NCBI GenBank assembly: GCA_015069195.1
Contig: SVJA01000007.1
Location: forward strand, 1 to 64,000
DNA: 64,000 nt
Direction of reading: 5' to 3'
Origin: Oscillospiraceae bacterium
GTDB taxonomy: Bacteria; Bacillota; Clostridia; UBA1212
The position numbers were made by a program, and so were the translations under genes. This document shows positions 11,279 through 60,354 of the stretch, one piece after another. Position 1 is the first letter of the stretch; each line of letters starts with the position of its first letter. The notes beneath the pieces are model-generated. The model was given only the letters and a program-made list of their open reading frames with translations, was not told the DNA's origin and did no database searches.

Positions 11279-11328
11279 AAAAAAACGGCAGGGAATCGGG
11301 CAACAGCCCGATTCCCTGCCGTTTTTTT
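11279..11328. terminator. strong bidirectional terminator hairpin
   Basis: A perfect 23-base-pair inverted repeat (11279-11301 with 11306-11328) has a four-base loop AACA. The core is ACGGCAGGGAATCGGGC flanked by A7 and T7, so each strand has a U-run. It lies just after the stop of the secreted 5'-nucleotidase and ends the cinA/nucleotidase unit. Confidence 0.92.
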
Positions 11329-11357
11329 GTACGGTTTACAAAATTTGAATATTCAAA

Positions 11358-13088: not shown

Positions 13089-13093
13089 AAAAA

Positions 13094-14353: not shown

Positions 14354-14466
14354 AAATTCCTCCGAAAAATCTTCGCACACATATTTTATAACAACTAACC
14401 CTTTTTTCGCAATACAAAACTACATACTTCCGACATTTTTTCTTTATAATATTATATAAAATTGAA

Positions 14467-14495
14467 TTGACTTAGGTATTGATTGAATATATAAT
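14467..14495 (+). promoter_or_regulatory. sigma-A promoter of the LRR lipoprotein gene
   Basis: The -35 box TTGACT (14467-14472) and -10 box TATAAT (14490-14495) are separated by exactly 17 bases. GGAGG lies at 14518-14522, shortly before the ATG at 14534. Confidence 0.8.
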
Positions 14496-14533
14496 GAACA
14501 TCATATGAATGAAATATGGAGGATGATTAGATC

Positions 14534-16624
14534 ATGAAAAAATCCTTGGCAGTTATTCTTGCTGTTGTTATGGTCTGTTCGTTGCTTTGCGCATGTACAG
14601 ATGATGCAAAAAACACACCTACCGTCACTCCGAGTGCAACAGCACCCGAAGTCAGCAAAGAGCCTACAGCTACATTGGCACCTGACGTCATTATCGAATA
14701 CGACAAGAAGCTCTTTACGGTAGAAGACGCTACACTTGTTAAATATCTCGGTTCTGCAGAAAGTGTTACAGTTCCAAATGGAATAAAGGCAATCGGCGCC
14801 TCCGCTTTCGAGAACAAAGTATCTCTTAAGAACATCACTCTTCCCGATTCTTTGATCAAGATTGAGAAAAATGCTTTTTCAGGTTGCAGTGCTCTCGCTG
14901 AAATCAAAATACCTAAATCCGTAGAATCTATCGGTAACTCTGCATTTGCAAAATGTACTGCTCTCAAGCAGATTTCGTTCCCTGCAAAAACAGTTGAGAT
15001 TGGAGAAGGTATACTTTCAGGTTGTACAGCTCTCACAGAAGCTACAATTTCAGCATCTACAAGAGCTATCCCCGCAAAAGCATTCTTCGGCTGTACAAAT
15101 CTTGCTTCTATAGTTATTCCCGGTGCCGCTAAAACTATCGGTGATAGTGCATTCGAAGGTTGTACAAAACTCTCCGACATAGAGTTTGGAAAGGGTGTTG
15201 AGTCAATCGGCACAAAAGCATTCTTCGGTTGTACATATCTCGGTATTTCCGGGAAACAGCTTTCTAAAGTAGAAGACGGTTCCCTTAAAGCAGAAGAAGC
15301 TGATTACGAAATCGACATACCTAACTCGATAACATCTATTGCAGCAGGCGCATTCGACGGAACAAAATGGTTAGAAAAAGCAGTTGCAGAAGCGCAGACA
15401 AAAGATATCGACAGCAATGACAGGTTTATACTTCTAGGCAAACACGGTATCCTTGTAAAATATGTACTTGCAGATGCTACAACAGTAAAAGCCAAGGTAA
15501 ACGACAACAATGTCTTCGAAAGTACAACACTTAACCTCACTTACGATTCTGCAAAAAATGATGTTATAATTAATAACATCGTACTCCATTACTCCGTGAA
15601 ATATATCTCTACAGGTGCTTTTGCTGACATAAAAGACAAAATCGAAAGAATCGATTTATCAGAAGATGCTGTAAAGAAAATAAATGAGTCTGCTTTTGCA
15701 AGTATGACAAAACTCAAAGAAATCACTTTGACAGAAGAAATTACAGAAATCCCTGCAAACTTGTTCCTCGGTTGCACTGCTCTTGAAACAGTTACTGTCG
15801 AAGGAAACATCGCGGCTGTCGGAGAAAATGCATTCAAAGGTTGTTCAAAGCTTTCTAAAATTGTAACAAGTTCTATCGCAGCAGATTCTACTGTCGGGGC
15901 GGATCTTTCCAGAAGCTTCGCAGTATTAGGTGACAGAGCATTCTCCGGTTGTTCATCTCTCACAGAAGTCACTCTTTCAAATGAACTTACAAGTATCGGA
16001 GAGTACTGTTTTGAGGGTTGCTCGAAAATAGCAAAAATCACAGTTGGCAACGCAGTTACACACATCGGTATCAAGGCATTCGACGGTACAGCATGGTTTG
16101 ACAAATGGGCCGGTGAAGGAGACAACAAAGCACTTGTTGTTGGTGATGGCATTCTTATCAAATCACTCGACGGAACAATTCCGGAAGGCGTAAAGGCTAT
16201 CGCAGCTTTCACATTTGCATCTTCAAAAACCACTATCACAGAGAAGGAATTCTACAACAGCAAACTTCCTGTTACAATTACAATTCCCGGTACTGTTACA
16301 AAGATTTCTGATTATGCATTCTACTATGCGACAAATCTCCAGGCAGTAATTATTGAGGAAGGTGTCAGAGAAATCGGTCAGAAGGCATTCTACGGATGTT
16401 CTTCTCTCTCTTACATAAAGATTCCTTCTTCAGTAAAACAGATAAGTGATTATGCATTCTATAACTGTACATCACTTACTTCGATTGAGCTTCCTGCAAG
16501 CGTTACAAAAATCGGAAACTATGCATTCTTTAACTGCCTCAGCCTTGAGGAAGCAAAGTACAATGCAAGTGCTCAGATCGGTACAGATGCATTCACAAAC
16601 ACAAAAGTAGTAACAGCAAAATAA
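14534..16624 (+). CDS. BspA-type leucine-rich-repeat surface lipoprotein
   Basis: The protein has 696 residues. The N-terminus is a lipoprotein signal with lipobox LCAC (Cys about residue 20), then a Thr/Pro-rich spacer. About a dozen BspA-like LRR_5 repeats follow, with the form IGxxAFxGCxxLxxIxIPxxVxxI, in three blocks separated by less regular insertions. Such proteins are surface-exposed and often bind host or environmental ligands, but no ligand can be named. It is monocistronic, with its own promoter and a long terminator hairpin. Three other LRR_5 proteins occur in this window (27942, 47314, 51223). Confidence 0.85.
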   Translation: MKKSLAVILAVVMVCSLLCACTDDAKNTPTVTPSATAPEVSKEPTATLAPDVIIEYDKKLFTVEDATLVKYLGSAESVTVPNGIKAIGASAFENKVSLKNITLPDSLIKIEKNAFSGCSALAEIKIPKSVESIGNSAFAKCTALKQISFPAKTVEIGEGILSGCTALTEATISASTRAIPAKAFFGCTNLASIVIPGAAKTIGDSAFEGCTKLSDIEFGKGVESIGTKAFFGCTYLGISGKQLSKVEDGSLKAEEADYEIDIPNSITSIAAGAFDGTKWLEKAVAEAQTKDIDSNDRFILLGKHGILVKYVLADATTVKAKVNDNNVFESTTLNLTYDSAKNDVIINNIVLHYSVKYISTGAFADIKDKIERIDLSEDAVKKINESAFASMTKLKEITLTEEITEIPANLFLGCTALETVTVEGNIAAVGENAFKGCSKLSKIVTSSIAADSTVGADLSRSFAVLGDRAFSGCSSLTEVTLSNELTSIGEYCFEGCSKIAKITVGNAVTHIGIKAFDGTAWFDKWAGEGDNKALVVGDGILIKSLDGTIPEGVKAIAAFTFASSKTTITEKEFYNSKLPVTITIPGTVTKISDYAFYYATNLQAVIIEEGVREIGQKAFYGCSSLSYIKIPSSVKQISDYAFYNCTSLTSIELPASVTKIGNYAFFNCLSLEEAKYNASAQIGTDAFTNTKVVTAK

Positions 16625-46083: not shown

Positions 46084-46221
46084 ATATAGGACCAACAAGC
46101 TTCTGCACTTAAAATAAAAATAGCAGCAAGCTATCTGCCTACTGCTATCTGTATGGTAAATTAAAATATTTTGGTCAATTTTTGGATCAAGCTCCGAAAA
46201 CAAATCTCCTTTCTTTATCAC

Positions 46222-46287: not shown

Positions 46288-46614
46288 TTATTCCTTCTCA
46301 ATGGTAAACTTCAGACACCAGCTTTCGTGAACTGAGTCACCGGCAACGGAATAGCTATTGCTTGCGTGTGCGATGACGGGTTCACCACCGCTGACAACCG
46401 TAACGGTATGATGGTCAACATACACTTCGGCTTTGACGATGTCACCTTCCTGTGTAACCGAGCGGATTTCAACTTTTATCTTATCTTCGTGGGGTAGAGG
46501 ATACTGGGCACCCTCTACTAATTCGTATCGCTTTTCGCCGTTATCCTCGTCAAACCAAGTGCTTTCCTTGTCGTATTCATAGTCCCATTTCATTACTAAC
46601 AAATATTTATCCAT
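46288..46614 (-). CDS. hypothetical protein, last gene of the operon
   Basis: The protein has 108 residues from the ATG at 46614 (GAGGTG seven bases upstream). It is beta-rich and acidic, with KIKVEIRSVTQEGDIVKAEVYVDHHTVTVV and a glycine turn, resembling a small beta-sandwich. No family was recognised. It is the distal gene of the island operon, 27 bases before the terminator. Confidence 0.6.
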   Translation of the reverse strand: MDKYLLVMKWDYEYDKESTWFDEDNGEKRYELVEGAQYPLPHEDKIKVEIRSVTQEGDIVKAEVYVDHHTVTVVSGGEPVIAHASNSYSVAGDSVHESWCLKFTIEKE

Positions 46615-46633
46615 AAATATCACCTCATTATTA

Positions 46634-47293
46634 TTAATCAAAAAGAACTCGCGGATTTAATTCGGCGGGCGTATGCCACTCGATATCGTGCTCCAAAAGA
46701 TAGGATTTTGTCAGCGACCATACCTCAAAACAGGAGCCGTGTCCGTAGGTCGTGCGGCTCTTTTCGACTTTTTCTTCTATTTCATCAATAACCGCAAGGT
46801 ATTCTTCGGTCATTTCAATAGGGTCATGTTTCAGCGAGCGACGTCGTTCTTTTCGTTCGTTTATGATCCGCCAGGCATCATCGGCATTCATAAGTTCTGT
46901 CGCAATGCCGGCAAGGTCGTCACAGTCATCATCAATATAAAAATTTCTTGCTTGCAAGGCGGCATAAAGATACCCGTCAATGCAATCGGTATCCGTGCCG
47001 TATTGCTGTTTCAGTGTCAGCGCCAATGTAAGAATTTGGTTATAAAACTTTGCTGACACAGCATAGCGCCCCAAACTATCGTAGCGGTCGGCTACGTATC
47101 CTAAAACTGCGATGCTATCAACATAAGTAGATTCGTCAGAGTCCCCAGCCAACTGTTCCTCTACAAGTCGCACAATCTCTTTCAGCGCAGGGACATCCTT
47201 ATAGGTAGCGGCGGCATATTCGTGTTCTTTGCGACCTTCTATTTTCCAAAATAATTCGGTCAGTTGCTTTTCGGTTTCTTTACTATAAGCCAT
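46634..47293 (-). CDS. hypothetical helical protein
   Basis: The protein has 219 residues, mostly helical and acidic, with a TPR-like pattern (VLGYVADRYDSLGRYAVSA then FYNQILTLALTLK). No catalytic motif was seen. It is unassigned and follows the small LRR gene by 20 bases in the operon. Confidence 0.65.
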   Translation of the reverse strand: MAYSKETEKQLTELFWKIEGRKEHEYAAATYKDVPALKEIVRLVEEQLAGDSDESTYVDSIAVLGYVADRYDSLGRYAVSAKFYNQILTLALTLKQQYGTDTDCIDGYLYAALQARNFYIDDDCDDLAGIATELMNADDAWRIINERKERRRSLKHDPIEMTEEYLAVIDEIEEKVEKSRTTYGHGSCFEVWSLTKSYLLEHDIEWHTPAELNPRVLFD

Positions 47294-47313: not shown

Positions 47314-47751
47314 TTAATGCGGATTATAATCATCATCCGACCAAAGCCTGTCATCCTCATAGCGTTCCGCAAACTTACTCGCTTTGCTGTTTTCCGGCAC
47401 ATCGAACCAGAGATCAGGTGAGCATTCATAAAACGCCCATTTGCTTATCATCGTACTGCTGCCGAGAACGGTAACATCAGTAAGGCCCGTACAGCCCTGA
47501 AACGCCCAGTCTTCAACATTTTCAACACGGGCAGGAATGGTGATTTCGGTAAGTCCCTCACAATCTTGGAACGCAGACCCTCTGATTCTCATAACGCCAT
47601 CGGGGAGGGTTACGCTTTTCATTTCCCGACAGCCATAAAACGCAGACCTACCGATCTCGTACACACCGTCGGGGATCACAACATCGCCACCGTTACCAAG
47701 ATATTTTCTCAAAACGCCGTCTTCAATTTCAAAAACTTTTGCGTTACTCAT
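47314..47751 (-). CDS. small BspA-type LRR protein
   Basis: The protein has 145 residues with four LRR_5 repeats (IGRSAFYGCREMKSVTLPDG and similar) and no signal peptide, so it is cytoplasmic. The C-terminal tail is acidic (YEDDRLWSDDDYNPH). Cytoplasmic LRRs may mediate protein recognition within this operon. It shares the repeat type with the C-terminal part of the 51223 product. Confidence 0.8.
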   Translation of the reverse strand: MSNAKVFEIEDGVLRKYLGNGGDVVIPDGVYEIGRSAFYGCREMKSVTLPDGVMRIRGSAFQDCEGLTEITIPARVENVEDWAFQGCTGLTDVTVLGSSTMISKWAFYECSPDLWFDVPENSKASKFAERYEDDRLWSDDDYNPH

Positions 47752-47780: not shown

Positions 47781-48341
47781 TTATGTATATTCTTCCCTTA
47801 GCGTAACATCGCTAAGGTCTTTTTCATTTTCACCGAAGAACAAGTAAACAAATCCATCCAAAGTATCGAGGAAATCCATATCGTTATCCAGAGGATCGTA
47901 TTGCATCAGAAGCTTCGGCGGCTCGTCCACGTAGTTCCAATCGCTCGGTATACCGAAAAGTCGGGTGCAGATCTCATCCTCGTCCACCTCGGAAAACTCC
48001 ATTATGTACGCATGAGTGTATTTCTCATATCCTTCCACGGCAGCATTGAAATCATCGATGGCAAGCTCAGGTTCCCCATCATGATAACGCACATCTGCGC
48101 AGAGATGATATTTTCCATCTTCGGTATGTAAAAACACGTAAAGATATCCCGTATGCGGGAGTCTGTTTTCCGTGTCAAGAAGTGCTATATCGGAAAGCCT
48201 TATCTGACAGAAAAATATCTCATCATCGTAGAAATCTCCGTCCCATACAAGGGGAACGGTGGGTGTTCCGAAGAACTTACTTGCTCCAAGGTCGTAGCCT
48301 TCTGGAGCCTTTTTTACTGTAATCTTGATTGCTTTACTCAT
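47781..48341 (-). CDS. DUF1963 (YwqG-family) protein
   Basis: The protein has 186 residues from the ATG at 48341 (AGAGGG six bases upstream). The family pattern includes SKFFGTPTVPLVWDG near the start, IFFCQIRLSDIALLD, and the ending PPKLLMQYDPLDNDMDFLD with GFVYLFFG. YwqG-like proteins are encoded in Bacillus beside polymorphic toxin and antitoxin genes and have no assigned reaction. Its presence supports an immunity-like tail of the operon (inference). Confidence 0.75.
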   Translation of the reverse strand: MSKAIKITVKKAPEGYDLGASKFFGTPTVPLVWDGDFYDDEIFFCQIRLSDIALLDTENRLPHTGYLYVFLHTEDGKYHLCADVRYHDGEPELAIDDFNAAVEGYEKYTHAYIMEFSEVDEDEICTRLFGIPSDWNYVDEPPKLLMQYDPLDNDMDFLDTLDGFVYLFFGENEKDLSDVTLREEYT

Positions 48342-48356
48342 ACGCATCCCTCTTTG

Positions 48357-48698
48357 TTACTCGACAATTTGAAAGTTCATCTCATCGGTTGCATACCATC
48401 CCGGGCCGTCGTCACTGGTTTCGTACTGACTATCCTCAAAGCCAATGATACTGCCTTTTATAAGTCTTTGCGGCTCGTGATTTTTCACTCCACGGTCGGT
48501 TTTGGAAACCGCCGATATCGTGACACTGTTCTCGTCCATTGACAGGATTTCAAAACTGCGAAAGGCGTGGAAAATGCCAAATAGTGAAGGGGTTGAATAC
48601 TCACCCAAAACGGCTTCCATCTCAATTTCATCAGCGAAGTTCCCCGAGGAAGGTCTCCTTGCACCAAAATCACTATATCTTGTTATCTTCAGTTTCAT
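48357..48698 (-). CDS. hypothetical protein
   Basis: The protein has 113 residues from the ATG at 48698; a TTG at 48704 is the alternative. It is predicted to be beta-rich, with MKLKITRYSDFGARRPSSG, SFEILSMDENSVTISAV and GSIIGFEDSQYE. No family was recognised. It starts two bases after the stop of the Sel1-like gene, so it is translationally coupled to it. Confidence 0.6.
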   Translation of the reverse strand: MKLKITRYSDFGARRPSSGNFADEIEMEAVLGEYSTPSLFGIFHAFRSFEILSMDENSVTISAVSKTDRGVKNHEPQRLIKGSIIGFEDSQYETSDDGPGWYATDEMNFQIVE

Positions 48699-48700
48699 AA

Positions 48701-49213
48701 TCAATCATCCTTTTTCTCATTGCGTTTTTGCCTTGCCGCTTCTTCACCTACACCCCGAAACACGTTCATTCCATAACGGCAGGGGTAGGCAGGCCGTAAA
48801 TAATAACTGCCATCAGACCGAAAGCCCTCTTCCATTTCGCACCATTCGGGGTGATGCTCCTTGATCCAATATTCAATAGAACCATAAAGACATTCAGGCT
48901 CAACATCCGTAAAGGTTTTGCCCGATGCAAAGGCCAGACGGCAGTAATGCTCAATTTTGTCGTGGTGTTCCTTTCTGTCCCAATTGGCATATAGGTCTGC
49001 CAACTTCCAATACGCCGTTTCCCGACCATGCTCGGCGGCAAAAGTCAGCATTTCTATTATCTCTTCGCGGGTGGGATACATCACTTTTTGGGTGTGAAAT
49101 GCCAACATTTCCATCGCTTCGGGGTCGCCGTTTTCCGCAGCTTCCTTATATTCTTTTATTTTACCCTTATGGTAATTTTCCCATTGTTCTCTTGCGCCAT
49201 CAAAGCTTGACAT
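48701..49213 (-). CDS. Sel1/TPR-like repeat protein
   Basis: The protein has 170 residues from the ATG at 49213 (GGAGG seven bases upstream). EYKEAAENGDPEAMEMLA, LTFAAEHGRETAYWKLADLY and CRLAFASGKTF show the alanine/glycine spacing of Sel1-like helical hairpins (two to three). Such proteins are scaffolds. The C-terminal part is Tyr/Gly/Arg-rich and unassigned. Confidence 0.7.
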   Translation of the reverse strand: MSSFDGAREQWENYHKGKIKEYKEAAENGDPEAMEMLAFHTQKVMYPTREEIIEMLTFAAEHGRETAYWKLADLYANWDRKEHHDKIEHYCRLAFASGKTFTDVEPECLYGSIEYWIKEHHPEWCEMEEGFRSDGSYYLRPAYPCRYGMNVFRGVGEEAARQKRNEKKDD

Positions 49214-49233
49214 CGCCATACCTCCTTCGATAG

Positions 49234-49880: not shown

Positions 49881-51143
49881 TTATACAATAGAGATAGCTT
49901 TTTCATAAAAGTCAATACACTCATCAATGGCGATCAGAAGCTTATCCAGCATTTCATCGTAATTGGTACGGCGCACCATACCATGCTCAATTGCATAGTT
50001 CTGCCACGCCGCTGCGTCAAGCTGTCCGCCGCTCAGTCCGCCCAGATCGTAATTAGGCTCAGGTGAAGGGGACATACCAAGCGCGCCTTTTTTCTTTAGT
50101 TCTTCGGCCGCTACTTTTAATTCGTAAACGTTTGTGTTGGACTCAAGCCATTGTCTCAATTCATAACGACAGTTGCCTACGCTTCGTGCTTCATCTGCGA
50201 TTTCTATACCTATGCAACCGTCAGCGTAAACCGGTTTGCCCTTTTGCACATCAACGACCGTTGTCTTTACCGGGTTACCGTTTTGGTCCACGGTCAGTGT
50301 CCAGGAATCAATCACGGTATAATCAAGTATGCCAATCTCTTTTTGCGCTTTGAACTTTCGATATTCCTCTTCCAACGCTCTTTGGTAGTAGGGAATCATT
50401 TTGAGTTCACATTCCCGCACAAATGCTTTTTCTTCCTCACGGAACGCCCAATAGAGCAAATCCGATATGGCGGCGTAAAATTTATACTGTATAGAAAAGA
50501 TGCTTTGGAGCTGCTCGTCTTGTTTAGCCAAAACCTCAAGAAACTCTTTGTATGCCTTGTTTAAGCGCTCATTATGTTCCAACATTAACTCCCTCATTTT
50601 TCTGCGGCAGGCATTTTCACGGTCTTGTATCATCTTACTGGTGGATATACCCGAATAAGCGGCTGCCGCTTCTTTAAAGTCGCCTTTTACCTCTGCCAAA
50701 ACGCCTTTACGCACCAGCACACGGTCGGCATATTCCACGTAGTGTCCCGCAAAAATATCGTCCGCACATCCCGTTTGAATTTGTGCCAGTTCTTTTACCG
50801 TGAAATAAGAAGAAGCAAACGCCATATCTTCCTCGTTGCCCAATGGGAAATCGCCGTCAAGACTATCGTTTTCCTCCTTCTTCATCTCATCCAGCCATTC
50901 ATAATAAGAGTCATCGTGACTGATGGCATCGGATACGACAGGTTCAATATGTCGGCGGATGAACAACTCTGCGACACGAATTATGCGAACAACCAAGTAA
51001 TCGCATAACTCGCGTTTAGAGGAGTCCTTTTCCGCAATCTCACGGTAAGCGGCAACCCATTCATCCCGTGCCGCCTCAATTTGCTGTCGGGTGTACTTTT
51101 TAAGAATATCGTAATCAAATTTCAACGCAATTTCCGGTTTCAT
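49881..51143 (-). CDS. hypothetical 420-residue protein
   Basis: The protein has 420 residues and is largely helical and charged. The central region is coiled-coil-like (EFLEVLAKQDEQLQSIFSIQ, AFVRECELKMIPYYQRALEE). A short beta segment SWTLTVDQNGNPVKTTVVDV and a basic/acidic C-terminal helix (DEMLDKLLIAIDECIDFYEK) follow. No family was recognised. GGAGG is eight bases before the ATG and lies within the small frame 51147-51209. Confidence 0.65.
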   Translation of the reverse strand: MKPEIALKFDYDILKKYTRQQIEAARDEWVAAYREIAEKDSSKRELCDYLVVRIIRVAELFIRRHIEPVVSDAISHDDSYYEWLDEMKKEENDSLDGDFPLGNEEDMAFASSYFTVKELAQIQTGCADDIFAGHYVEYADRVLVRKGVLAEVKGDFKEAAAAYSGISTSKMIQDRENACRRKMRELMLEHNERLNKAYKEFLEVLAKQDEQLQSIFSIQYKFYAAISDLLYWAFREEEKAFVRECELKMIPYYQRALEEEYRKFKAQKEIGILDYTVIDSWTLTVDQNGNPVKTTVVDVQKGKPVYADGCIGIEIADEARSVGNCRYELRQWLESNTNVYELKVAAEELKKKGALGMSPSPEPNYDLGGLSGGQLDAAAWQNYAIEHGMVRRTNYDEMLDKLLIAIDECIDFYEKAISIV

Positions 51144-51222: not shown

Positions 51223-53751
51223 TTATTTTTTAAACGCTCTGCGATTTATGTCTTTGATTTTCCTAATCATATCCTTAGACATAGCCACATCACATTCTGA
51301 GAAAGCACCGTTTTCCAGTTCAACTCCCCGTGGTGGGTCAGTTTCAAATATTACATCCCTTACACCACACATTAAGCCCCATTTTTCCACATTAATATTA
51401 TTAGGCAAATAAATAGTTTTAATTTCGAAGCAAATTGAAAATGCCGAAGCTCCAATACGTCTTACACTGTTAGGAATTCTTAAAACAGGACCAATATTTT
51501 TGCACCACGAAAAAGCATCCTTACCGATTTCCTCTAAGTCCTCATTAAAGCAAACTTTTTTCAAATTCTCGCATTTAGAGAACACATAATCTGAGATCTT
51601 TTTTACGCCATTCGGAACAACCAACACAGGACATTTAGCGAAAAAGTTCTGCTTCTCCTGGGTATTCATATCCAACAGTCGATTCCATACCTTCTCACAA
51701 TTATAATCGTAACTTAGATAACGCCCAAACTCTGCAGGGTCACCTTGCTCTCCGTTTGGTAAAACCACTGACAAAATGCGAGATAACTCACCATTCATAA
51801 AATAACCAGTAAAACTATGCCCATCCGGATATACGCGGGTGCCTTTTCCGTTAAGAGAACCATTTATAAATTCCCCATTATCATAGTATACCAAATTAAT
51901 CTTATCGTTTGGATACGCAAAATATCCTTTGCAACCCATCGGGCGCTCCACTGTTGTATTCAGTATGTAGTCACCATTGCTATTTCGTACAAAAGCGCCA
52001 TATTCCCATTTTGTGCTTTTATCATCATATAGCCAAGCACGAAGTCCAAATTTTAATATTCCGTGTTCAAAGATGCCCTCTTCGTAATACTGGGGTTCTC
52101 TAAAAGATGTCCAAAGGCAGCACCAGCCGTGTGCCTTTAAACTATTATCAACATTACCAAAATACCACATATCACCGGAATATATGCCAAATTCTCCTGC
52201 TTCCCTACATCCAAAATCTGGCGAACTAACACCGTTACCGTTATTATAATAAAGACTGCTTATTGGGCCTTGACCGCTAGGATAGGAAAGACTGCGGTCA
52301 AATCCACGACCGTGTAGAACTCCTTCTTTATAATTTCCTACAAAGATTGTATCTCCATCTTTGTAGATTCCAAATCCGTGCATAGAACCGTTTTTCCAAA
52401 ACCCTTCATATATGCTGCCATCAGAGAAATAGGAAATTCCCCAACCATTTGGAGTGCCTTCGTCGGTGGCATAACCGATGTAAGCGTGGCCTTTTTCGGT
52501 CATAAAAGATTGGAATCCATCGTAAAAAAGTCCTTCATTCTCCTCTTCGGTCTCATTGCTTTCCTCGCACCCTTCTTCCTCTTCGTCCTCATCATACTCC
52601 GCATTTATGTACCCAAAATCCGTATCATAGAGACGTCCTTGAACGTTTGGTGTGATATACATATCTTCCATCTCTAGAAGTTCGTCTAAAAACTCACCAT
52701 AGATTTTCTCGATTTCATAATAGGATTCCCCCTCAACAATACATGAATATTGCTGATCATTTACGAACAATCGGGCAAAATACAGGGCCCCTATATCCCA
52801 CATAATGTTTTCTTCAAGTCCATAGGTTTCTAAATAGTAATCAAGATAATATTTAAACAGATCCGATGGGCAACGATCATTTAATGTAGAATATTCGTTA
52901 TAAAGGTAATGCGCAAAATGAAGCATGGCAGTTTCGGTAAGATCGTTAGGTTCAGCAAGACATTCGTTATATGCACATTTCAACGCACATTCACAGAGGT
53001 CAAAAAGCTGTACTTCTTCACCCGAAAAAATTCCTTCATCAGAAGTAGCACTATTCAAGACATTCGCATCCACCTGTACAATTTCAGCCAAAAATTCCTG
53101 TGCCGTACCGAGGTCTCTTTCTTCTAAGTTGTTCAAAACTGCCTGGAAGAATGGACCGATATTATTTACAGCATTATCCAGATTACCATATCCATCATTA
53201 TACAAACTGCTTTCTTCATCCATACAAGCGTTGTAATAGTCTGTCATGGTTTCAAATTCTTCGTCATAAGTATCCACATCCTGCTCGTATACTTCTTCTA
53301 TACAGTCTTCCACTTCAATGACAGTTGCTTTCTTTGGAGTTTCAGACTGAGGCTTTATCTCATTTTTCTGTGCTTCCGCACCGAAAATAGCATCAAATTC
53401 ATCATTTTTCGGCGTAGATACCTTTGCTGGAGAAGGAGTAGTCTTTTTCGTAGCGGATTTTTTTGTTGTGTTAGACTTCTTTGTTGTGGTAGTCTTTTTT
53501 TCTGCAGGAGCTTCTATTTTCAGTTCAAGACCTGGGACTGACACGGTATTGCCAAGTGAGTCCAGTTCCTTGAATAGAGCGGTCGCCTTGTCTTTGTCCA
53601 ATCCTGTTGCAACAGTTGAAGGCGCTTTGTCCACCATAGCTTTAGCTGCAGCAAGACCAAGCCCTAATGCCTGGCATATGGCTCTGGTCGTCTTTAACTG
53701 TTGATTTCCAACTTTTTCTAAAATAACATCATAATTTTTCTTATCAGCCAT
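51223..53751 (-). CDS. L7/L12-CTD-like, MORN and LRR multidomain protein
   Basis: The protein has 842 residues. Residues about 5-72 match the ribosomal protein L7/L12 C-terminal domain (YDVILEKVGNQQLKTTRAIC, ALGLGLAAAKAMVDKAPSTV). A Lys/Thr-rich linker and an acidic helical domain follow. The middle has MORN-type repeats (GSIYEGFWKNGSMHGFGIY, FVGNYKEGVLHGRGF, GHSFTGYFMNGEL). The last 130 residues are LRR_5 repeats (YVFSKCENLKKVCFNEDLEE). No signal peptide is seen, so it is cytoplasmic. Its ATG lies within the last eight bases of the STAND NTPase gene (ATGGCTGA), so the two are translationally coupled and probably interact. Confidence 0.8.
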   Translation of the reverse strand: MADKKNYDVILEKVGNQQLKTTRAICQALGLGLAAAKAMVDKAPSTVATGLDKDKATALFKELDSLGNTVSVPGLELKIEAPAEKKTTTTKKSNTTKKSATKKTTPSPAKVSTPKNDEFDAIFGAEAQKNEIKPQSETPKKATVIEVEDCIEEVYEQDVDTYDEEFETMTDYYNACMDEESSLYNDGYGNLDNAVNNIGPFFQAVLNNLEERDLGTAQEFLAEIVQVDANVLNSATSDEGIFSGEEVQLFDLCECALKCAYNECLAEPNDLTETAMLHFAHYLYNEYSTLNDRCPSDLFKYYLDYYLETYGLEENIMWDIGALYFARLFVNDQQYSCIVEGESYYEIEKIYGEFLDELLEMEDMYITPNVQGRLYDTDFGYINAEYDEDEEEEGCEESNETEEENEGLFYDGFQSFMTEKGHAYIGYATDEGTPNGWGISYFSDGSIYEGFWKNGSMHGFGIYKDGDTIFVGNYKEGVLHGRGFDRSLSYPSGQGPISSLYYNNGNGVSSPDFGCREAGEFGIYSGDMWYFGNVDNSLKAHGWCCLWTSFREPQYYEEGIFEHGILKFGLRAWLYDDKSTKWEYGAFVRNSNGDYILNTTVERPMGCKGYFAYPNDKINLVYYDNGEFINGSLNGKGTRVYPDGHSFTGYFMNGELSRILSVVLPNGEQGDPAEFGRYLSYDYNCEKVWNRLLDMNTQEKQNFFAKCPVLVVPNGVKKISDYVFSKCENLKKVCFNEDLEEIGKDAFSWCKNIGPVLRIPNSVRRIGASAFSICFEIKTIYLPNNINVEKWGLMCGVRDVIFETDPPRGVELENGAFSECDVAMSKDMIRKIKDINRRAFKK

Positions 53752-56700
53752 TTTCAATTTCCTCCTTTAAAATCTCGCAATATGCCTCGATTGATATAGA
53801 AGCAATACGTTCTAATCCCATATATTGGTCCTTGATCGTATTAAATTTTTCTACGATTTCTAAAAATTTATCCATATCCTCTTCAATATAATAGTACCTG
53901 ATGATATCTTGTACGATGGTTTCCAATTCTCCGTCGCATTTTGCCGCTTCAAGCAATCTTTCTATGTCGTCTATGTATTGCAACACATATGCACAGTGGA
54001 GAATGTCCACATAATCTGAAACATCTAATACCGTTTCTACCAAATACTTCGTAATGGTTATATACCAATCTACTAAATTCTCGTCAAGCTCCTCTTCTTT
54101 ATCAGACAAATCAGCAAAATAAAACAGCAATGCACGCCAAAACATGATACCATCTGACCTATGACTTGTACGTTTCCATACTTCCTCGGCTTTATGCATA
54201 AGGTCTTCATTATCAACCTCTTTGACATCAAGATTTACCTGAATTTCTGCACGGAGCAAATCTAAATCGAAAGGATATTCCTGCTTACCAATCATAATCC
54301 AATAGTCATCTTCCATAAGCTTGGAAATATACATAAAATCTTCTTTCTTAGCTTCAAATATATCTGATTCATAAGCAATGTCGTAGGCCATATCATGATA
54401 TTTTTCTCCTAATTCATCATCGAATAAGCTAACTATTTCTGAAAACTCGGTATACACCTTCATTCTTAAAAAGATATTTTCATATTCCGAATCATATGAG
54501 AAAACATCCAGAAATTCCTCTCCCTTAATATACTGTTCAAAAAACGCAATGGATTTCGTTTTATTAACAGCCTTAAGTAAACAAAAATAGATTTTGTTGG
54601 CTAAGTTTTCATCAAACTCCATTTCATTTTTTTGAAACAAATCAAGTGTATTCGTTAGTAATATAAAAGCGTTTTTAGGTTTGATATCAATCAAACATTC
54701 AACTAACTCAATAAGTGCCTTTATTTCGATTATAAAAAGAAGCTTGCTATCTTTGGTTAAACACTCATCACAGGCAATTGCAAGCGGCGAGTAAAAATCA
54801 TATACTAAACTTTCCGAGTCCGCATCAACATCATAGAAAGACGGTAAAAGCCTAACATTATAAAACTCCTCATTCTTTCCAATTGCAAGCAACAAATCAA
54901 TCGCTTTTTGATAATATCCTCGTATAAGCAAATAACAAATACTATCCGTAATATCTTCTATTTTAGAACGTCTCAGTACAGAAACCAAATACTCAGGTGA
55001 AGAATCTAGTATTGCCGATTTAAACGCGTATGGACGCAGTTCTTCATTCTGTAGCATGTATTCAGCCGCCGGAATGGCATCCCAATCATTCACATATCTA
55101 GAAATGCTTTGTTCAATTGCTCTGTTTTTTATTTTATAAAAACGATGGTAAGGATTGTAGCTTAGAACATCTTCTAACATCTGTACTACAAGCGAAAACT
55201 CAAGGTCATTAAAATCCCAATTGTATTCTGCGAAAATACCACGAATATCTTCAATGCTAAAACTGACAGGAACATGTGTGAAGAGTCCTATTATTCTCTC
55301 TACAAACACATGGTTAATACGTTCCCCTGCCTCTTCCATAAGCTCACCCAGGATCTCATATCGTTCATCGGTAGTGTTATCTACAATGGATATCATATAT
55401 TTATTAATGTTATCCATACCATCTCCCATAGCACGAATAGTGGCAAAATCCTCACTATCCAGAATCAGCAGTCTCTTAATAATGCTTTTTAGATATGAAC
55501 TATAACAACTGCTTTCCTTAGATAGAATACATTCTTTTACTACCTCCGAGATTTCTTTGTGATTACTTCTTACAATACTGTCAAGTACTAATTTGGACTC
55601 TTCTTTCGTCAGCCCTCTCATAAGTGCCTTATTCGAAAACTCGAAAAAAGGATAAAAAGGAAGTTCCCTTTGCATTGCTATCACAAAAACAGCCTTAAAT
55701 TCCATATTTTCTTCACTACTGCGCCATGTTGTTTCCAAAAAAGCCATATTTTGCAGCAATTCTCTATCGGCATTATCGATAAAAATACCAATTGGTTCTT
55801 CCAATTTTGATAGCATACTCAAAATTTCTGCGTATAAATCTTCATCCGTATAGACCCTGTGTTCCAATCCTAAGATATCTTCTAATTTATAGATTAGAAT
55901 CTCTGGAAATGAGAGAAAATCACTACTGAATTTATCAAGGCCAAAGGAATATGCCAGTTTTTCTCCCTTCCACTTGCAATATGAGCTAATAACTGATGTG
56001 CTTTTACCGCTGCCCTCTTCTCCGTTAACATAAATGAACATTCTATCCTCTGTGACCTCTGAGCCACAATAAGCAAAATCATAATTATCGACAGCAGCGA
56101 TGGTTTTATTGATTTCTTCAAAATAGCGTTGGGCGGCCTGCATACTACGTTCCTGCCATGGAGTATTGCTTTCTGCCTCTAAATCCCGAAGTAATACTTT
56201 ACTAAGATCTGCCTCTACCTGCGATAGGAAATTTTCAAGACCTACAACTCTTTTGTTCTTTGCATCCCAAATAGCATCATAATAGCGAATCTGATCCGGA
56301 TAAATTTCTCCAATGCGTTTTTTGAGTTCATTCACCTTATTTAAATGAATTTCACTTTCTGCTTCATAATCACGACGCTCTACATCGGTCATGCCGGATT
56401 TATCAAGATTACGGAAATAGAACAAGATGCGACCTTCATATTCCGGATTCAGTAATGCACCGTAATCAATCTCTAATTCCGTTACGGAAATATCTTTGAT
56501 TTTTTCAATACCCTTTAATACACAAGCCTCATCGATTAACTCCTGTGCCGGTATCCATCCATATCGCTCACCAATGAGCACAATCATATATGGCTTACAA
56601 TTGTCGATTTGGTCGAGACATACTTTAAGAACCTTACGGCTTCCTTCATCCGAATCCAAATCCGTGGTGTTAACACCCCAACGCAAATCGCCGAAGTACG

Positions 56701-56815
56701 CTTTTTCACCGTATTCACGCAATTGTTCGTTAAGCGTGGGAATAGCATAGGTCTGCAACATATCCCTTTCAAACTGCATGTCTTTAAATGTTGATGAAAC
56801 AAATACCAGCTTCAT
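53744..56815 (-). CDS. DUF4062-STAND NTPase (predicted conflict-system sensor)
   Basis: The protein has 1023 residues. Residues 1-130 match the DUF4062/TEP1-NPHP3-type N-domain: VFVSSTFKDMQFERDML, DLRWGVNTTD, CLDQIDNCKPYMIVLIGERY. A STAND-type NTPase follows: Walker A VNGEEGSGKST (about 263-273) and Walker B IGIFIDNAD (about 342-350). The remaining 600 residues are helical, TPR-like repeats that would act as the sensor arm. Similar STAND proteins include anti-phage Avs-like systems, but no target is known. It follows the RyR membrane protein by 20 bases and overlaps the next gene by eight. Confidence 0.82.
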   Translation of the reverse strand: MKLVFVSSTFKDMQFERDMLQTYAIPTLNEQLREYGEKAYFGDLRWGVNTTDLDSDEGSRKVLKVCLDQIDNCKPYMIVLIGERYGWIPAQELIDEACVLKGIEKIKDISVTELEIDYGALLNPEYEGRILFYFRNLDKSGMTDVERRDYEAESEIHLNKVNELKKRIGEIYPDQIRYYDAIWDAKNKRVVGLENFLSQVEADLSKVLLRDLEAESNTPWQERSMQAAQRYFEEINKTIAAVDNYDFAYCGSEVTEDRMFIYVNGEEGSGKSTSVISSYCKWKGEKLAYSFGLDKFSSDFLSFPEILIYKLEDILGLEHRVYTDEDLYAEILSMLSKLEEPIGIFIDNADRELLQNMAFLETTWRSSEENMEFKAVFVIAMQRELPFYPFFEFSNKALMRGLTKEESKLVLDSIVRSNHKEISEVVKECILSKESSCYSSYLKSIIKRLLILDSEDFATIRAMGDGMDNINKYMISIVDNTTDERYEILGELMEEAGERINHVFVERIIGLFTHVPVSFSIEDIRGIFAEYNWDFNDLEFSLVVQMLEDVLSYNPYHRFYKIKNRAIEQSISRYVNDWDAIPAAEYMLQNEELRPYAFKSAILDSSPEYLVSVLRRSKIEDITDSICYLLIRGYYQKAIDLLLAIGKNEEFYNVRLLPSFYDVDADSESLVYDFYSPLAIACDECLTKDSKLLFIIEIKALIELVECLIDIKPKNAFILLTNTLDLFQKNEMEFDENLANKIYFCLLKAVNKTKSIAFFEQYIKGEEFLDVFSYDSEYENIFLRMKVYTEFSEIVSLFDDELGEKYHDMAYDIAYESDIFEAKKEDFMYISKLMEDDYWIMIGKQEYPFDLDLLRAEIQVNLDVKEVDNEDLMHKAEEVWKRTSHRSDGIMFWRALLFYFADLSDKEEELDENLVDWYITITKYLVETVLDVSDYVDILHCAYVLQYIDDIERLLEAAKCDGELETIVQDIIRYYYIEEDMDKFLEIVEKFNTIKDQYMGLERIASISIEAYCEILKEEIENG

Positions 56816-56835: not shown

Positions 56836-58869
56836 TTATTTTTCTATTAACGAATAACCAAGAGATGTTAATAGTTCCTCGGCTGAGGTAATCAGCATTT
56901 CATCATAAATATAATAGTCATAGTCTTCGGCGGTACATCCATTTCCTGCTTTTTCTGCTAGGTAGGATGATAAATCGTTCAGACCATTATATGTCGTAAG
57001 GCAGGCATGTTTTTTAGACACGGTATTTTTCACATTAAAGCGTACTTTCTTACCGTCTTCAGACTTGATTGTAATACCGTCTTTCCTAAGAGGAAGGTAT
57101 TCCCCGAGCAGATGATACGCATTCCATCTTGCATGCTCCTGGGCAATCAATGCATTACGAACAGAAGGTGTAAAATATTCGCTGTAAGCGTATTCTCCGT
57201 TGCGTCCGTAACGTTCCCCAACAAGTGCAGTGTTTGCTCCATTGCCGTCCTTTACATAATCCAAACCAAGCAAATTGAGCTTTACTCGCAGACTCATTGC
57301 CGAATAGATGTTGGAATATAAGGTAAAATAGTCAAGGCTGTTCCAATCTTCTTCTGCTTTTTTCTGAATATACTCGGCAAAATCTGGACGTTTTCTTTCC
57401 TCTTCCCCTGCATATTGTGCGGTGTATACTTCGTTAAGCTTCTTTGCCATAACCGACAAACTATCATTAACAATAACCTCGTGATTAAACACGCTTTCAC
57501 TCTTTCCAAAATATGTAGTATTCGCATTGTCCTCGGTATATGCAGCTTCGCTACGCACAAACAACTGATAATTGTCCTTATCAAATAGAGCCGTATTTAT
57601 TTTTGCAGCAATCTCAATATTATGACAATCTTCATTGGTATCCACAACAATCAATGTATAACTGTTATCCTTTTGTACCTTTGTTTTAATTGCCTTTAGC
57701 ACCTCGCGTGAGGCAGGCGACTTATCGATTGTCACGGTTTTATATGGCAATTCTGGTAATGGGAAATATTCCGCAGTATTACATTCTTCCAGTTCCTCTG
57801 CCAAACCGCCAATATCCCATTCTGCAGTATCAATATTTGTGTCGCATAAAAAATAATTTATCGGCAGGACTTTATATTCGCCATCAAAAGTAACCAGCTG
57901 ATTGTTCAGAATGGATTGACGATACCATTCTTTACAAAACTTTCCAAAACCAAGCACAAACATGTTGATTTCCGTTCCTTGCTTAACAGCAGCTTTTTCG
58001 ATAAAGTTATTTGGCAGATACTTTGTAACAGGATGTTCTTCCATAAGCATACGTACTAACAGTTCATTTGTGCTGAAGGTGTCAATGTACGCTTCCATCC
58101 CATTCTTCTCAATAATTTCACGACGAATCGTTTCGGCCTTCTCTCCCTCCATCTCTACATAGAGGTATATGTTTTTAGATTCCTGTGCCGCTTTCTTGTA
58201 CGCAATGAATGTGTCTACACAATCCAGGCTCTTTTCCTCATTAATACAAATCAGGTTATAACGTGTGTTGGTGTTGAACAGGTGACCTTTTAGCAAAGTC
58301 TCTGTAAAGCCTTTGTGTAAAATTACATACTTATCTTCGATTAATTCATTAATAGCATCTTTGCTTACGCTGTCATCCAGTAGCAATACTGCATTGTATG
58401 ACTTCGCATAACGCAAGGCACGTGGACTGTTCCCCATTACCACATCACAATCTGTCTGTTTCATTGCCTTTGCAAGACGAAAGCTATTGACTATTGAATT
58501 GTGAAAAGCCTCAACAACTGTACTGATAACAGAAATGAGGGATACCAGAACCGCCAATATATAGGCATATGCAAAAATCGAAACGACTTCAGAGAAAGCA
58601 ATTGCTGATTCACCGCCACCCTGGCCAATGAACATCTGAACCGCCGACATCACACAGCCGAACAACCCAAAAACATGATTTACTTTTTCCTCAAGCACTA
58701 TCACGTTATACAGATACGGCACAAGATTTAACGCCAAATTCACAAGAAATACAACCGCTAAATATGGGAGCGTTTCATTGAGTTTCTTCCTGTTAAATCG
58801 TCCAATAATAAAACTAAGTAATAGCACGACTTCGACAATTAAAATAAAAATGCTAATATTGTTCCACAT
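56836..58869 (-). CDS. membrane protein with TrkA-N-like and RyR domains
   Basis: The protein has 677 residues. Three to four hydrophobic segments (about 5-25, 33-60, 95-122) are followed by two Rossmann-like regions: CDVVMGNSPRALRYAKSYNA with LICINEEKSLDC, and later INMFVLGFGKFCKEWY. The C-terminal RyR domain has LIAQEHARWNAYHLLGEYLP and KKHACLTTYNGL, then YDYYIYDE. TM-TrkA-N-RyR proteins were proposed in comparative genomics of nucleotide-centred conflict systems as ligand-gated channel-like effectors. Here it would be the membrane effector of the STAND NTPase (inference). Confidence 0.8.
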   Translation of the reverse strand: MWNNISIFILIVEVVLLLSFIIGRFNRKKLNETLPYLAVVFLVNLALNLVPYLYNVIVLEEKVNHVFGLFGCVMSAVQMFIGQGGGESAIAFSEVVSIFAYAYILAVLVSLISVISTVVEAFHNSIVNSFRLAKAMKQTDCDVVMGNSPRALRYAKSYNAVLLLDDSVSKDAINELIEDKYVILHKGFTETLLKGHLFNTNTRYNLICINEEKSLDCVDTFIAYKKAAQESKNIYLYVEMEGEKAETIRREIIEKNGMEAYIDTFSTNELLVRMLMEEHPVTKYLPNNFIEKAAVKQGTEINMFVLGFGKFCKEWYRQSILNNQLVTFDGEYKVLPINYFLCDTNIDTAEWDIGGLAEELEECNTAEYFPLPELPYKTVTIDKSPASREVLKAIKTKVQKDNSYTLIVVDTNEDCHNIEIAAKINTALFDKDNYQLFVRSEAAYTEDNANTTYFGKSESVFNHEVIVNDSLSVMAKKLNEVYTAQYAGEEERKRPDFAEYIQKKAEEDWNSLDYFTLYSNIYSAMSLRVKLNLLGLDYVKDGNGANTALVGERYGRNGEYAYSEYFTPSVRNALIAQEHARWNAYHLLGEYLPLRKDGITIKSEDGKKVRFNVKNTVSKKHACLTTYNGLNDLSSYLAEKAGNGCTAEDYDYYIYDEMLITSAEELLTSLGYSLIEK

Positions 58870-59134: not shown

Positions 59135-59163
59135 ATTATAGCACAACGGATTCATTCTTACAA
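59135..59163 (-). promoter_or_regulatory. promoter of the twelve-gene operon
   Basis: On the minus strand TTGTAA (59158-59163) and TATAAT (59135-59140) are 17 bases apart. It lies between the spoIVB terminator and the XRE gene. Confidence 0.7.
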
Positions 59164-59259: not shown

Positions 59260-60354
59260 TCAACGATCCAACATATTCTCAATAAATATCCCATACCCCC
59301 TCGTTGGGTCATTCACTAGCACATGCGTCACCGCACCGATTAGTTTGCCATCCTGTAATATTGGACTGCCGCTCATACCCTGAACAATTCCTCCTGTCTC
59401 TGCAAGAAGATCACGGTCAGTTACATAAATTGACATTCCTTTTGAAGTTTCGCTCGAATCATTTTTAATTAATTCTATTTTCACGGCATATTCTTTCGGA
59501 GTTGTTCCCGATACCGTAGAAATAATCGTTGCGTCTCCGGAGTATATCTCACTCATCCGTGCAACCGGCATTAAAATTCCGTACTCGTCCATATCATTGA
59601 CTACGCTTTCAGATATTGTTCCGTAGATACCTCTGTCACAGTTTGTTTCAACGTTTCCTATTCCGTTTTCATTTTCTGAATTCAGAAAATAACCTTGCAA
59701 TTCACCGGGAGAACCCGACTTACCTTTTACACAACCGCCTATTGCAGCATCGTATAAAGTACCGTCTGACATTTCAAAAAGTCCGCAATACTCCGCACCG
59801 CCTATGCCGTGACCGAGAGCACCGTATTGATTATTTTCAGGATTTATATATGTGAGTGTACCGATACCTGCCGCATTGTCCTTTACCCACAAACCAAGCT
59901 TGTTCTGATGGCTTTCAGCCGAAACATCCGGTGTCACTGTAATTGTACAAACTTCATCATTTCGTATGACATTTACATCACAACTGCCCGTGCTTTTGTA
60001 AATACAGTTTTGCAAATCTACCGTTGAATGAACTTCCTCTCCGGAAACCGAAACAATTCTGTCACCGACAAGTATTCCCGCATCAAAGCTCGGATTTACG
60101 AATTTATCGTTTTCATTTTTAAAACCGATAAAACCTGTTACAATAACTCCGTCCGATTGCATCTTTATACCAATAGGAACACCGCACACATAAAGGTGCG
60201 ACGGATAAGCATTCACTTCACTGTATCCGTAAGTTTCTACAGCCGTTACGGTATCACATGTATTTATTCCGCCAAAGAAACCGCATGAAAAAATCATTAA
60301 AACAAATGACAAAAAGCAAAGATTTTTAGCAAACAGTTTCGTTTTTTCTTTCAC
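59260..60354 (-). CDS. spoIVB: SpoIVB sporulation peptidase (S55)
   Basis: The protein has 364 residues. A signal/TM segment (about 10-30) is followed by a PDZ domain (about 85-150; DAGILVGDRIVSVSGEEV) and the S55 serine peptidase domain. The catalytic-region motifs are GALGHGIG (His) and IVQGMSGSPILQ (Ser). SpoIVB is secreted from the forespore and triggers pro-sigma-K processing by cleaving SpoIVFA. The C-terminus ENMLDR is very short after the last conserved motif. It follows recN; spo0A, the usual next gene, is missing and is replaced by the island operon. Confidence 0.95.
   Translation of the reverse strand: MKEKTKLFAKNLCFLSFVLMIFSCGFFGGINTCDTVTAVETYGYSEVNAYPSHLYVCGVPIGIKMQSDGVIVTGFIGFKNENDKFVNPSFDAGILVGDRIVSVSGEEVHSTVDLQNCIYKSTGSCDVNVIRNDEVCTITVTPDVSAESHQNKLGLWVKDNAAGIGTLTYINPENNQYGALGHGIGGAEYCGLFEMSDGTLYDAAIGGCVKGKSGSPGELQGYFLNSENENGIGNVETNCDRGIYGTISESVVNDMDEYGILMPVARMSEIYSGDATIISTVSGTTPKEYAVKIELIKNDSSETSKGMSIYVTDRDLLAETGGIVQGMSGSPILQDGKLIGAVTHVLVNDPTRGYGIFIENMLDR

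What the first reader, a model, noticed from the sequence alone, without database searches (positions are those of the whole stretch)
53744..56815. Large STAND NTPase with TEP1/NPHP3-type N-domain
The N-terminus (SSTFKDMQFERDML, DLRWGV, GERYGW) is strikingly like the N-domain of animal TEP1 and NPHP3, joined to a P-loop NTPase and about 600 residues of helical repeats. Known bacterial STAND sensors bind phage proteins through such repeats; this one has no recognisable C-terminal effector, so partners encoded beside it may supply it.
Basis: partly seen in the sequence, partly recalled or inferred. Interest (0 to 1): 0.7.

Follow-up and report, generated by a model that had tools for sequence, protein, structure and literature searches.

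The report
Bacterial TEP1-like NADase immune sensor
A gut bacterium carries a large sensor protein built like human TEP1 and NPHP3 whose front end matches a newly described NAD-destroying enzyme, and genes with a signal-binding RyR domain, here fused to a channel-type membrane protein, recur beside such sensors, hinting at an unrecognised bacterial immune relay.

Summary
The ORF is real and intact (1023 aa). Its N-domain is DUF4062 (Pfam E 6e-13) and matches the solved human TEP1 TIR-like domain over residues 4-203 (E 2e-16). TEP1's catalytic Glu1008 falls on E115, invariant in 78 of 78 relatives. A STAND/NACHT-type NTPase and about 460 helical residues follow. The N-domain is under strong purifying selection; the C-terminus diverges fast.

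The gene lies in a 12-gene, one-strand cassette. The gene before it encodes a membrane protein with a tandem-RCK fold and a divergent RyR domain. RyR-domain genes adjoin such STANDs in 13 of 78 loci, in four orientations and scattered over the tree, although the domain is rare. Phage RyR domains bind or cleave cADPR immune signals (PMC13232231); the ligand residues are kept here.

Best reading: an NLR-like, probably antiphage, sensor that burns NAD+, sometimes paired with an RyR receptor or switch. Domain identities are well supported; activity, defence role and signal relay are inferred.

The parts
53744..56815 (-). DUF4062-STAND NTPase, 1023 aa
56165..56815 (-). residues 1-217: DUF4062 TIR-like domain (predicted NADase effector)
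   Evidence: 11gz TEP1 E 1.6e-16, profile E 1.1e-41; TIR-STING 9lmq Z 10.2 over residues 1-216
56471..56473 (-). codon of E115, predicted catalytic Glu (aligned with TEP1 E1008)
   Evidence: 78 of 78 sequences; numbering fixed
55616..56098 (-). residues 240-400: P-loop NTPase core (Walker A 265-273, Walker B near D347)
55124..55615 (-). residues 401-564: helical and winged-helix part of the STAND module
   Evidence: AF2 secondary structure; matches to CED-4, NLR and Apaf-1 structures reach residues 570-660
53747..55123 (-). residues 565-1023: helical C-terminus, presumed sensor, fast diverging
56836..58869 (-). membrane protein with tandem-RCK fold and C-terminal RyR-like domain, 677 aa
58882..59094 (-). 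70-aa Cro/C1-type HTH regulator (PF13443 E 1e-19)
59135..59163 (-). extended -10 promoter-like site TTGTAA-17-TATAAT with TG
   Evidence: similar sequence in L008 and L022, partly L013, not L009
59183..59216 (-). terminator-like hairpin between spoIVB and the cassette
51223..53751 (-). L7/L12-CTD + MORN + BspA-LRR protein (likely ATG start at 53751, overlapping the STAND stop)
49881..51143 (-). 420-aa cassette protein; 90% identical gene in L008
49234..49866 (-). 210-aa cassette protein
48701..49219 (-). 172-aa cassette protein (no match in L008)
48357..48704 (-). 115-aa cassette protein
47781..48347 (-). p188, weak DUF1963-like; near DUF4062-STANDs in 7 of 78 loci
47314..47751 (-). 145-aa BspA-type LRR protein
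46634..47293 (-). p219, TPR-like; near DUF4062-STANDs in 5 of 78 loci by cluster
46288..46641 (-). p117, last gene of the cassette; in 3 of 78 loci
46118..46150 (-). terminator-like hairpin after the last cassette gene

Best explanation
An NLR-like bacterial immune sensor of TEP1/NPHP3 architecture. The fast-evolving C-terminal helical part senses a phage or other intruder signal; the STAND NTPase then oligomerises and brings the N-terminal DUF4062 TIR-like domains together; these hydrolyse NAD+ around E115 and stop or kill the cell (abortive infection). The membrane partner encoded just upstream (RCK gating-ring fold plus RyR domain) most likely reads the ADP-ribose-type product or the NAD state and acts at the membrane, or tunes the signal. 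Shown by computation: domain identities, TIR-like fold, STAND kinship, catalytic Glu, purifying selection on the N-domain, cassette layout, recurrent RyR adjacency, kept RyR ligand residues. Inferred: activity, trigger, oligomerisation, antiphage role, direction of the RyR step.
For: DUF4062 and TEP1 matches; DUF4062 shown to be a NADase acting in defence, and TEP1 active (PMC13174449); E115 = TEP1 E1008, invariant in 78 of 78 sequences together with R84, S110 and T112; TIR-like fold, TIR-STING Z 10.2; STAND kinship: 6mfv Z 11.0, CED-4, Apaf-1, plant NLRs, Avs3; NPHP3_N in 17 and NACHT in 11 of 38 sequences. Residues 1-120: 97-98% identical to L008, L009 and L013 with dN 0.00-0.04 and dS 0.64 or more (some saturated), while the other segments have dN 0.11-0.48. 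In L010-L012 and L014-L021 the first 120 residues are 55-72% identical and the part beyond 575 only 3-21%, the pattern of a kept effector with a changing sensor. Patchy: with the whole protein as query, 2 of 97 relatives and 5 of 391 class genomes match, own genome counted in both, and every match but the own covers at most about residues 1-504. RyR-domain gene beside the STAND in 13 of 78 loci against 26 of 391 class genomes with any PF02026 match.
Against: No activity or phage data. NPHP3, NWD1 and NWD2, with a similar architecture, showed no NADase activity when purified (PMC13174449). None of the ten cassette proteins scanned matches a PADLOC model at better than E 0.03. No classical defence gene in the cassette. 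RyR is absent between HTH and STAND in the nearest relatives L009 and L013, so it is optional (their downstream side is off the contig). RCK-RyR proteins also occur away from DUF4062, several among housekeeping genes, and in the class sample no DUF4062 place other than the window's lies on one contig with an RyR or RCK-RyR match (15 other places, only 3 of them in frames over 1000 aa). ORC/Cdc6-type AAA+ structures score as well as the STAND ones for the NTPase (Z 10.8 against 11.0). The RCK-RyR model is of low confidence (pLDDT 55.6).
Confidence: 0.66

Rival explanations
1. Swarozyc-like NAD+ depletion is the whole effector; the RyR protein is an off-switch or guard that binds or cleaves ADPR-type products, so accidental firing is not lethal.
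For: Phage RyDEP is an RyR-domain glycosidase using H75 and D117, and homologues are sponges (PMC13232231); the first His and an Asp at the matching place are kept in 15 of 15 RyR domains. RyR is optional, as a modulator would be. KpSwz and TEP1 were reported to make ADPR.
Against: A soluble domain would do for a sponge; here and in the eight relatives of alignment A3 it is fused to membrane helices and an RCK-type part. L024, L031 and L072 lack that part, though.
Confidence: 0.22
2. RyR adjacency is only crowding of mobile defence genes; the two genes work apart.
For: RCK-RyR homologues sit in unrelated contexts in other Clostridia; RyR was not seen next to the STAND in 65 of 78 loci (some cut by contig ends). 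By Pfam alone RyR is found in 7 of the 138 nearest neighbours listed, only a little above AAA_14 (5 of 91 scanned, not among the 25 families shown for the other 47).
Against: RyR is rare (26 of 391 class genomes, 31 places). By Pfam 9 of 77 fetched loci have one beside the STAND (7, plus L062 and L072); a rough proportion expects about 0.04 in 1.25 Mb. By sequence cluster RyR (8 of 138) is twice the next family that is not a STAND or LRR piece (4). Four orientations; 11 changes on the tree. The window's HTH-RyR pair recurs (RyR 71%) beside a STAND of another clade in L022.
Confidence: 0.2
3. A catalytically silent scaffold or ordinary signalling STAND (as NPHP3 or MalT-type), not immune.
For: NPHP3 and NWD1/2 inactive in the preprint; MalT among the fold matches; chromosomal position beside spoIVB; odd cassette partners (L7/L12-MORN-LRR).
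Against: Catalytic Glu invariant and near-zero dN in the N-domain; patchy distribution and changing flanks; fast-diverging C-terminus.
Confidence: 0.13
4. One reading: the STAND has no effector of its own and fires one encoded beside it.
For: Recurrent RyR, p188 and p219 neighbours.
Against: An effector domain is present at the N-terminus (PMC13174449).
Confidence: 0.08

Closest known systems
Human TEP1 (DUF4062-NACHT-WD40, NADase of the RNA vault; PMC13174449, PDB 11gz)
   Same: N-domain aligned over nearly its whole length, catalytic Glu, R976 equivalent (R84); DUF4062 followed by a NACHT/STAND NTPase
   Different: C-terminus helical, not WD40; no TEP1 N-terminal extension; K11 in place of R908 and K61 in place of R954
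NPHP3 / NWD1 / NWD2
   Same: DUF4062 + NACHT-type NTPase; 17 of 38 sequences match NPHP3_N and 2 of 38 TPR_NPHP3
   Different: Reported inactive as NADases; functions in cilia or neurons (recalled)
Swarozyc (KpSwz), bacterial DUF4062 antiphage system
   Same: DUF4062 TIR-like domain with catalytic Glu, in bacteria
   Different: KpSwz chain of 326 residues with a portal-binding HTH/winged AUX domain; the family profile matches it only weakly (E 0.012, 15 residues) against 1.1e-41 for TEP1; here a STAND NTPase and helical C-terminus
Avs / bacterial NLR-like STAND defence proteins
   Same: N-terminal effector, STAND NTPase, helical sensor; Avs3 and AVAST5 among fold matches
   Different: TIR-like DUF4062 effector; no PADLOC match for this protein
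Thoeris (TIR enzyme plus signal-reading effector) and phage RyDEP
   Same: Enzyme-plus-reader logic; RyR ligand residues

Membership tests
DUF4062 TIR-like NADase | Pfam DUF4062 above curated cut-off | tested here: met
   49.3 bits against 24.7
DUF4062 TIR-like NADase | catalytic Glu (TEP1 E1008, KpSwz E97) | tested here: met
   E115, 78 of 78 sequences
DUF4062 TIR-like NADase | TIR-like fold | tested here: met
   AF2 model residues 1-216 on TIR-STING 9lmq Z 10.2, 3.6 A, 145 aligned
DUF4062 TIR-like NADase | NAD+ hydrolysis | not testable with these tools
   needs an enzyme assay
STAND/NACHT NTPase | Walker A and B | tested here: met
   GEEGSGKST 265-273 and IFID with D347; P-loop Lys kept in 27 of 38 rows, 3 rows end before it
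STAND/NACHT NTPase | Pfam NTPase model above cut-off in the window protein | tested here: not met
   AAA_22 23.2 bits under 27; relatives such as L033 and L050 pass NPHP3_N
STAND/NACHT NTPase | NTPase + helical + winged-helix fold | tested here: met
   6mfv Z 11.0 (522 aligned, 17.4 A), NRC1 8bv0 Z 10.6 (300, 6.2 A), CED-4 2a5y Z 10.1 (222, 4.6 A); ORC/Cdc6 rows tie (2qby Z 10.8), so the fold alone does not single out STAND
STAND/NACHT NTPase | C-terminal repeat sensor | tested here: inconclusive
   helical, low confidence beyond residue 650
Swarozyc | AUX winged portal-binding domain after DUF4062 | tested here: not met
   an NTPase follows DUF4062; profile match to KpSwz covers 15 residues of its N-terminus
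Known PADLOC defence families | model match | tested here: not met
   none for the STAND at E <= 1, none better than E 0.03 for the ten cassette proteins scanned
RyR domain (PF02026), partner gene | Pfam match of the window protein | tested here: not met
   no RyR row at E <= 1; L008 none either; of the other six A3 relatives scanned five pass the cut-off, L050 is at 26.2 against 27.4
RyR domain (PF02026), partner gene | ligand residues of RyDEP H75, W78, H100, D117 | tested here: met
   window H579, W582, H621 and D649 (alignment A3) or D651 (alignment of 15 domains; a 13-residue insertion lies before it); the profile matches RyR crystal structures at these columns; His and Trp 15 of 15, second His 14 of 15 (L024 has Thr), Asp 15 of 15
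RCK-gated channel/transporter, partner gene | tandem RCK gating-ring fold | tested here: met
   KtrA 5but Z 14.0, MtDMI1 13.7, GsuK 13.6, TrkA 13.4, CASTOR 13.2, from a model with mean pLDDT 55.6
RCK-gated channel/transporter, partner gene | pore with K+ selectivity filter | tested here: inconclusive
   helices predicted at low confidence; no GYG-type motif seen by eye in the N-terminal 140 residues
Thoeris | SLOG- or macro-type effector beside a TIR enzyme | tested here: not met
   no such Pfam match among the cassette proteins scanned

The most novel reading that the evidence does not exclude
A two-step immune relay not yet described: a TEP1-type STAND/TIR-like enzyme makes an ADP-ribose-type messenger, and an RyR-domain, RCK-gated membrane channel opens on binding it. 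It would be a bacterial counterpart of cADPR-to-ryanodine-receptor signalling, with the same enzyme architecture as human TEP1.
Probability: 0.28. Interest if true: 0.9.

Novelty: new variant of a known kind. Interest (0 to 1): 0.62.

Why it matters
It gives TEP1 and NPHP3 a bacterial family with the same effector and NTPase order, by sequence profile closer to TEP1 than to the published bacterial system KpSwz. It offers small genetic pairs (STAND + RyR protein) with which one can test whether RyR domains are receptors for NAD-derived immune signals, an old question about cADPR and ryanodine receptors.

Tried and rejected
Effector missing: rejected once DUF4062 was identified as a NADase domain.

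Gene conversion as the cause of the near-identical N-domain: rejected, synonymous sites there are widely diverged or saturated.

Phage carriage: no match in phages, none confirmed in viral contigs, two distant plasmid matches only.

RyR link as an artefact of one clade: rejected, 11 changes on a quick tree, at least 9 forced by well-supported branches, 105 of 500 shuffles as low. Loci whose flank is off the contig were scored as lacking RyR; L022 and L067 hold under half of the columns, so their places are less sure.

RyR link as an effect of my own profile: alignment A3 was built from the window and eight of these loci, so its matches there are partly by construction. I therefore give Pfam counts beside it. 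In one search I had scanned 91 of the 138 neighbours, leaving out RyR genes, STAND pieces, very long proteins and, by hand, some others; one search scanned the remaining 47. The result (RyR 7, AAA_14 at least 5 of 138) is weaker than I first had it, and I raised the crowding rival from 0.18 to 0.20.

Link of the L7/L12-MORN-LRR gene with the STAND: only in L008.

PDB profile searches: p188 nothing significant, p219 TPR-like.

Literature: searches and a term search inside PMC7159879 (no occurrences) showed no paper that joins DUF4062 with RyR or with an RCK channel; PMC13174449 does not hold the words RyR or channel in its main text. Supplements were not readable and older subscription-journal work on prokaryotic conflict systems is not in the library, so this is no proof of absence. 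Papers other than PMC13174449 and PMC13232231 were seen as listings only, or by that one term search.
Full report
What is there. The ORF at 53744-56815 (-) is intact, 1023 aa, with a ribosome-binding-site-like GGAGG before its ATG. Residues 4-117 match Pfam DUF4062 (E 5.8e-13) and residues 4-203 match the crystallised TIR-like domain of human TEP1 (11gz_A, E 1.6e-16). A profile of 38 sequences (A2: the window and 37 of the 77 loci, chosen as near relatives or of similar length) raises this to E 1.1e-41, against E 0.012 over 15 residues for the bacterial KpSwz. By this measure the family is nearer to TEP1 than to the published bacterial DUF4062 system.

Effector. A preprint of May 2026 (PMC13174449; [quoted passage not shown] Residue numbers in that paper (R908, R954, R976, E1008) fit the 11gz chain with one offset out of 20 tried, which puts E1008 on window residue E115 and R976 on R84. 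E115, R84, S110 and T112 are identical in 78 of 78 sequences (window and 77 loci), while residue 113 is Glu in only 25. The protein therefore carries its own effector at the N-terminus. Activity itself is not shown.

NTPase and sensor. The AF2 model (38 rows, mean pLDDT 75.4, pTM 0.60) has an N-domain that aligns with a TIR-STING structure (Z 10.2, 145 residues, 3.6 A) and a middle part that aligns with STAND proteins: 6mfv (Z 11.0), plant NLRs, CED-4, Apaf-1 and Avs3. Archaeal and eukaryotic ORC/Cdc6 ATPases score as well (2qby Z 10.8), and the tool warns that Z in this range can mean a common arrangement, so the STAND assignment leans on sequence too: of the 38, 17 match NPHP3_N, 11 NACHT, 12 nSTAND_NTPase5 and 7 TPR_12 at E <= 1e-3. 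The window's own NTPase is divergent and under Pfam's cut-off. Residues 565-1023 are helical, with low confidence beyond about 650.

Evolution. Against L008, L009 and L013 the first 120 residues are 97-98% identical with dN 0.00-0.04 and dS 0.64 or higher (two of six segments saturated), while the other segments have dN 0.11-0.48. In L010-L012 and L014-L021 the first 120 residues are 55-72% identical and the part beyond residue 575 only 3-21%. This is strong purifying selection on the enzyme domain and rapid change in the rest. The protein is rare: with the whole protein as query, 2 of 97 relatives and 5 of 391 class genomes match, own genome counted in both, and apart from the own the matches stay within about residues 1-504. 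The own genome has one DUF4062 gene. The recN-spoIVB pair upstream is conserved in five relatives examined, with nadK before it in four of them (off the stretch in the fifth, one gene between in two), but what follows spoIVB differs and none shows the cassette in the stretch fetched.

Cassette. Between a terminator-like hairpin and an extended -10 promoter-like site (59216-59135) and a terminator-like hairpin at 46150-46118 lie 12 genes on one strand: HTH, RyR protein, STAND, L7/L12-MORN-LRR, p420, p210, p172, p115, p188, LRR, p219, p117. Such consensus sites are no rarer in shuffles (promoter-like 31 against 36.9; terminator-like 14 against 9.7, sd 3.3), so these rest on place, strength and, for the promoter, similarity in L008 and L022. 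L008 keeps the order, without p172 and with an extra 756-aa ORF. p188 and p219 were found in none of 146 other class genomes yet lie near DUF4062-STANDs in 7 and 5 of 78 loci by cluster (tblastn adds partial p219 matches in L014 and L020), including STAND-p188-p219 in L016 and L018.

The RyR partner. The 677-aa product before the STAND has N-terminal hydrophobic helices, a tandem-RCK fold (KtrA Z 14.0, MtDMI1, GsuK, TrkA, CASTOR; low-confidence model) and a C-terminal RyR-like domain that Pfam misses in the window protein but finds in relatives; a profile of nine members matches solved RyR domains (best E 1.7e-16). A preprint of 29 May 2026 (PMC13232231; parts 1-2 of 6 read) shows phage RyR-domain proteins that cleave or sequester 2'- and 3'-cADPR, with ligand residues H75, W78, H100 and D117. 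The matching window residues are H579, W582, H621 and D649 by alignment A3, or D651 by an alignment of 15 domains. Over those 15 domains from the 13 loci, the HxxW pair is kept in 15, the second His in 14 and an Asp in 15.

How often. RyR-domain genes adjoin the STAND in 13 of 78 loci (window and L008, L022, L024, L025, L030, L031, L033, L034, L050, L062, L067, L072): six upstream on the same strand, one divergent, four convergent downstream, two downstream on the same strand (in L062 the STAND frame is interrupted, in L072 a 91-aa antisense ORF lies between). Found with profile A3, of which the window and eight of these loci are members, so the count leans on its own seeds; by Pfam's independent model 9 of 77 loci have it (7 of 138 mechanical nearest neighbours, plus L062 and L072). 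In 391 class genomes Pfam RyR occurs in 26, at 31 places, and the A3 profile in 29; taking about 2.5 Mb a genome, judged from the listed sizes, about 0.04 would be expected in the 1.25 Mb of loci. Among other neighbours AAA_14 comes near by Pfam (5 of 91 scanned), a family I recall as common in mobile DNA; by sequence cluster RyR has 8 of 138, the next family that is not STAND or LRR pieces 4. The label needs 11 changes on the tree, so the pairing arose or was lost many times. In L022 the HTH and RyR genes resemble the window's (RyR 71%) while the STAND, from 197 residues, groups with L014 and L017; this suggests exchange of modules. Against the link: L009 and L013, the nearest STANDs, have HTH directly before the STAND; RCK-RyR genes elsewhere lie away from DUF4062, several among housekeeping genes; and in the class sample none of the 15 DUF4062 places outside the window shares a contig with an RyR match, though only 3 of them are in frames over 1000 aa. 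The partner is thus optional and probably recruited.

Mechanism. Core: sensing by the C-terminus, NTP-dependent assembly, clustering of TIR-like domains, NAD+ loss. The RyR-RCK protein most likely reads the product or the NAD state; whether it amplifies (opens the membrane) or damps (binds or cleaves the product) is open. A channel-type fold favours the first; the kept His/Asp pair and the report that KpSwz and TEP1 make ADPR favour caution. Antiphage function is inferred from kinship and from the evolutionary pattern alone.

Noticed in passing
window 47781-48347 and 46634-47293 (-): p188 (weakly DUF1963-like) and p219 (TPR-like) are found in none of 146 other class genomes but recur near DUF4062-STANDs of several taxa; accessory proteins of unknown role.
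   Followed up: partly
L025 3383-5575 and L030 6137-8332 (-): A second RyR protein with an AAA domain lies between the STAND and the RCK-RyR gene, convergent to the STAND.
   Followed up: partly
L024 539-2296, L031 8098-9876, L072 14125-15906: RyR-domain neighbours of about 590 aa without a clear membrane/RCK part; another RyR architecture next to DUF4062-STANDs.
   Followed up: partly
L037, L039, L062, L067, L068: STAND frames are interrupted shortly after the N-domain or in mid-protein; assembly errors or inactivated genes.
   Followed up: no
window 51223-53751 (-): Unusual fusion of a ribosomal L7/L12 C-terminal domain, MORN repeats and BspA-type LRRs.
   Followed up: no
L073, L074, L075, L082: A small protein gene (163-199 aa, cluster c14) sits directly before the STAND in four related loci.
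   Followed up: no
window 10114-16624 and 59260-60354: Relatives of genes from window 10-16.6 kb lie close to spoIVB in two relatives (L130, L131) but some 42 kb from it here, so a long stretch including the cassette is inserted or rearranged.
   Followed up: partly
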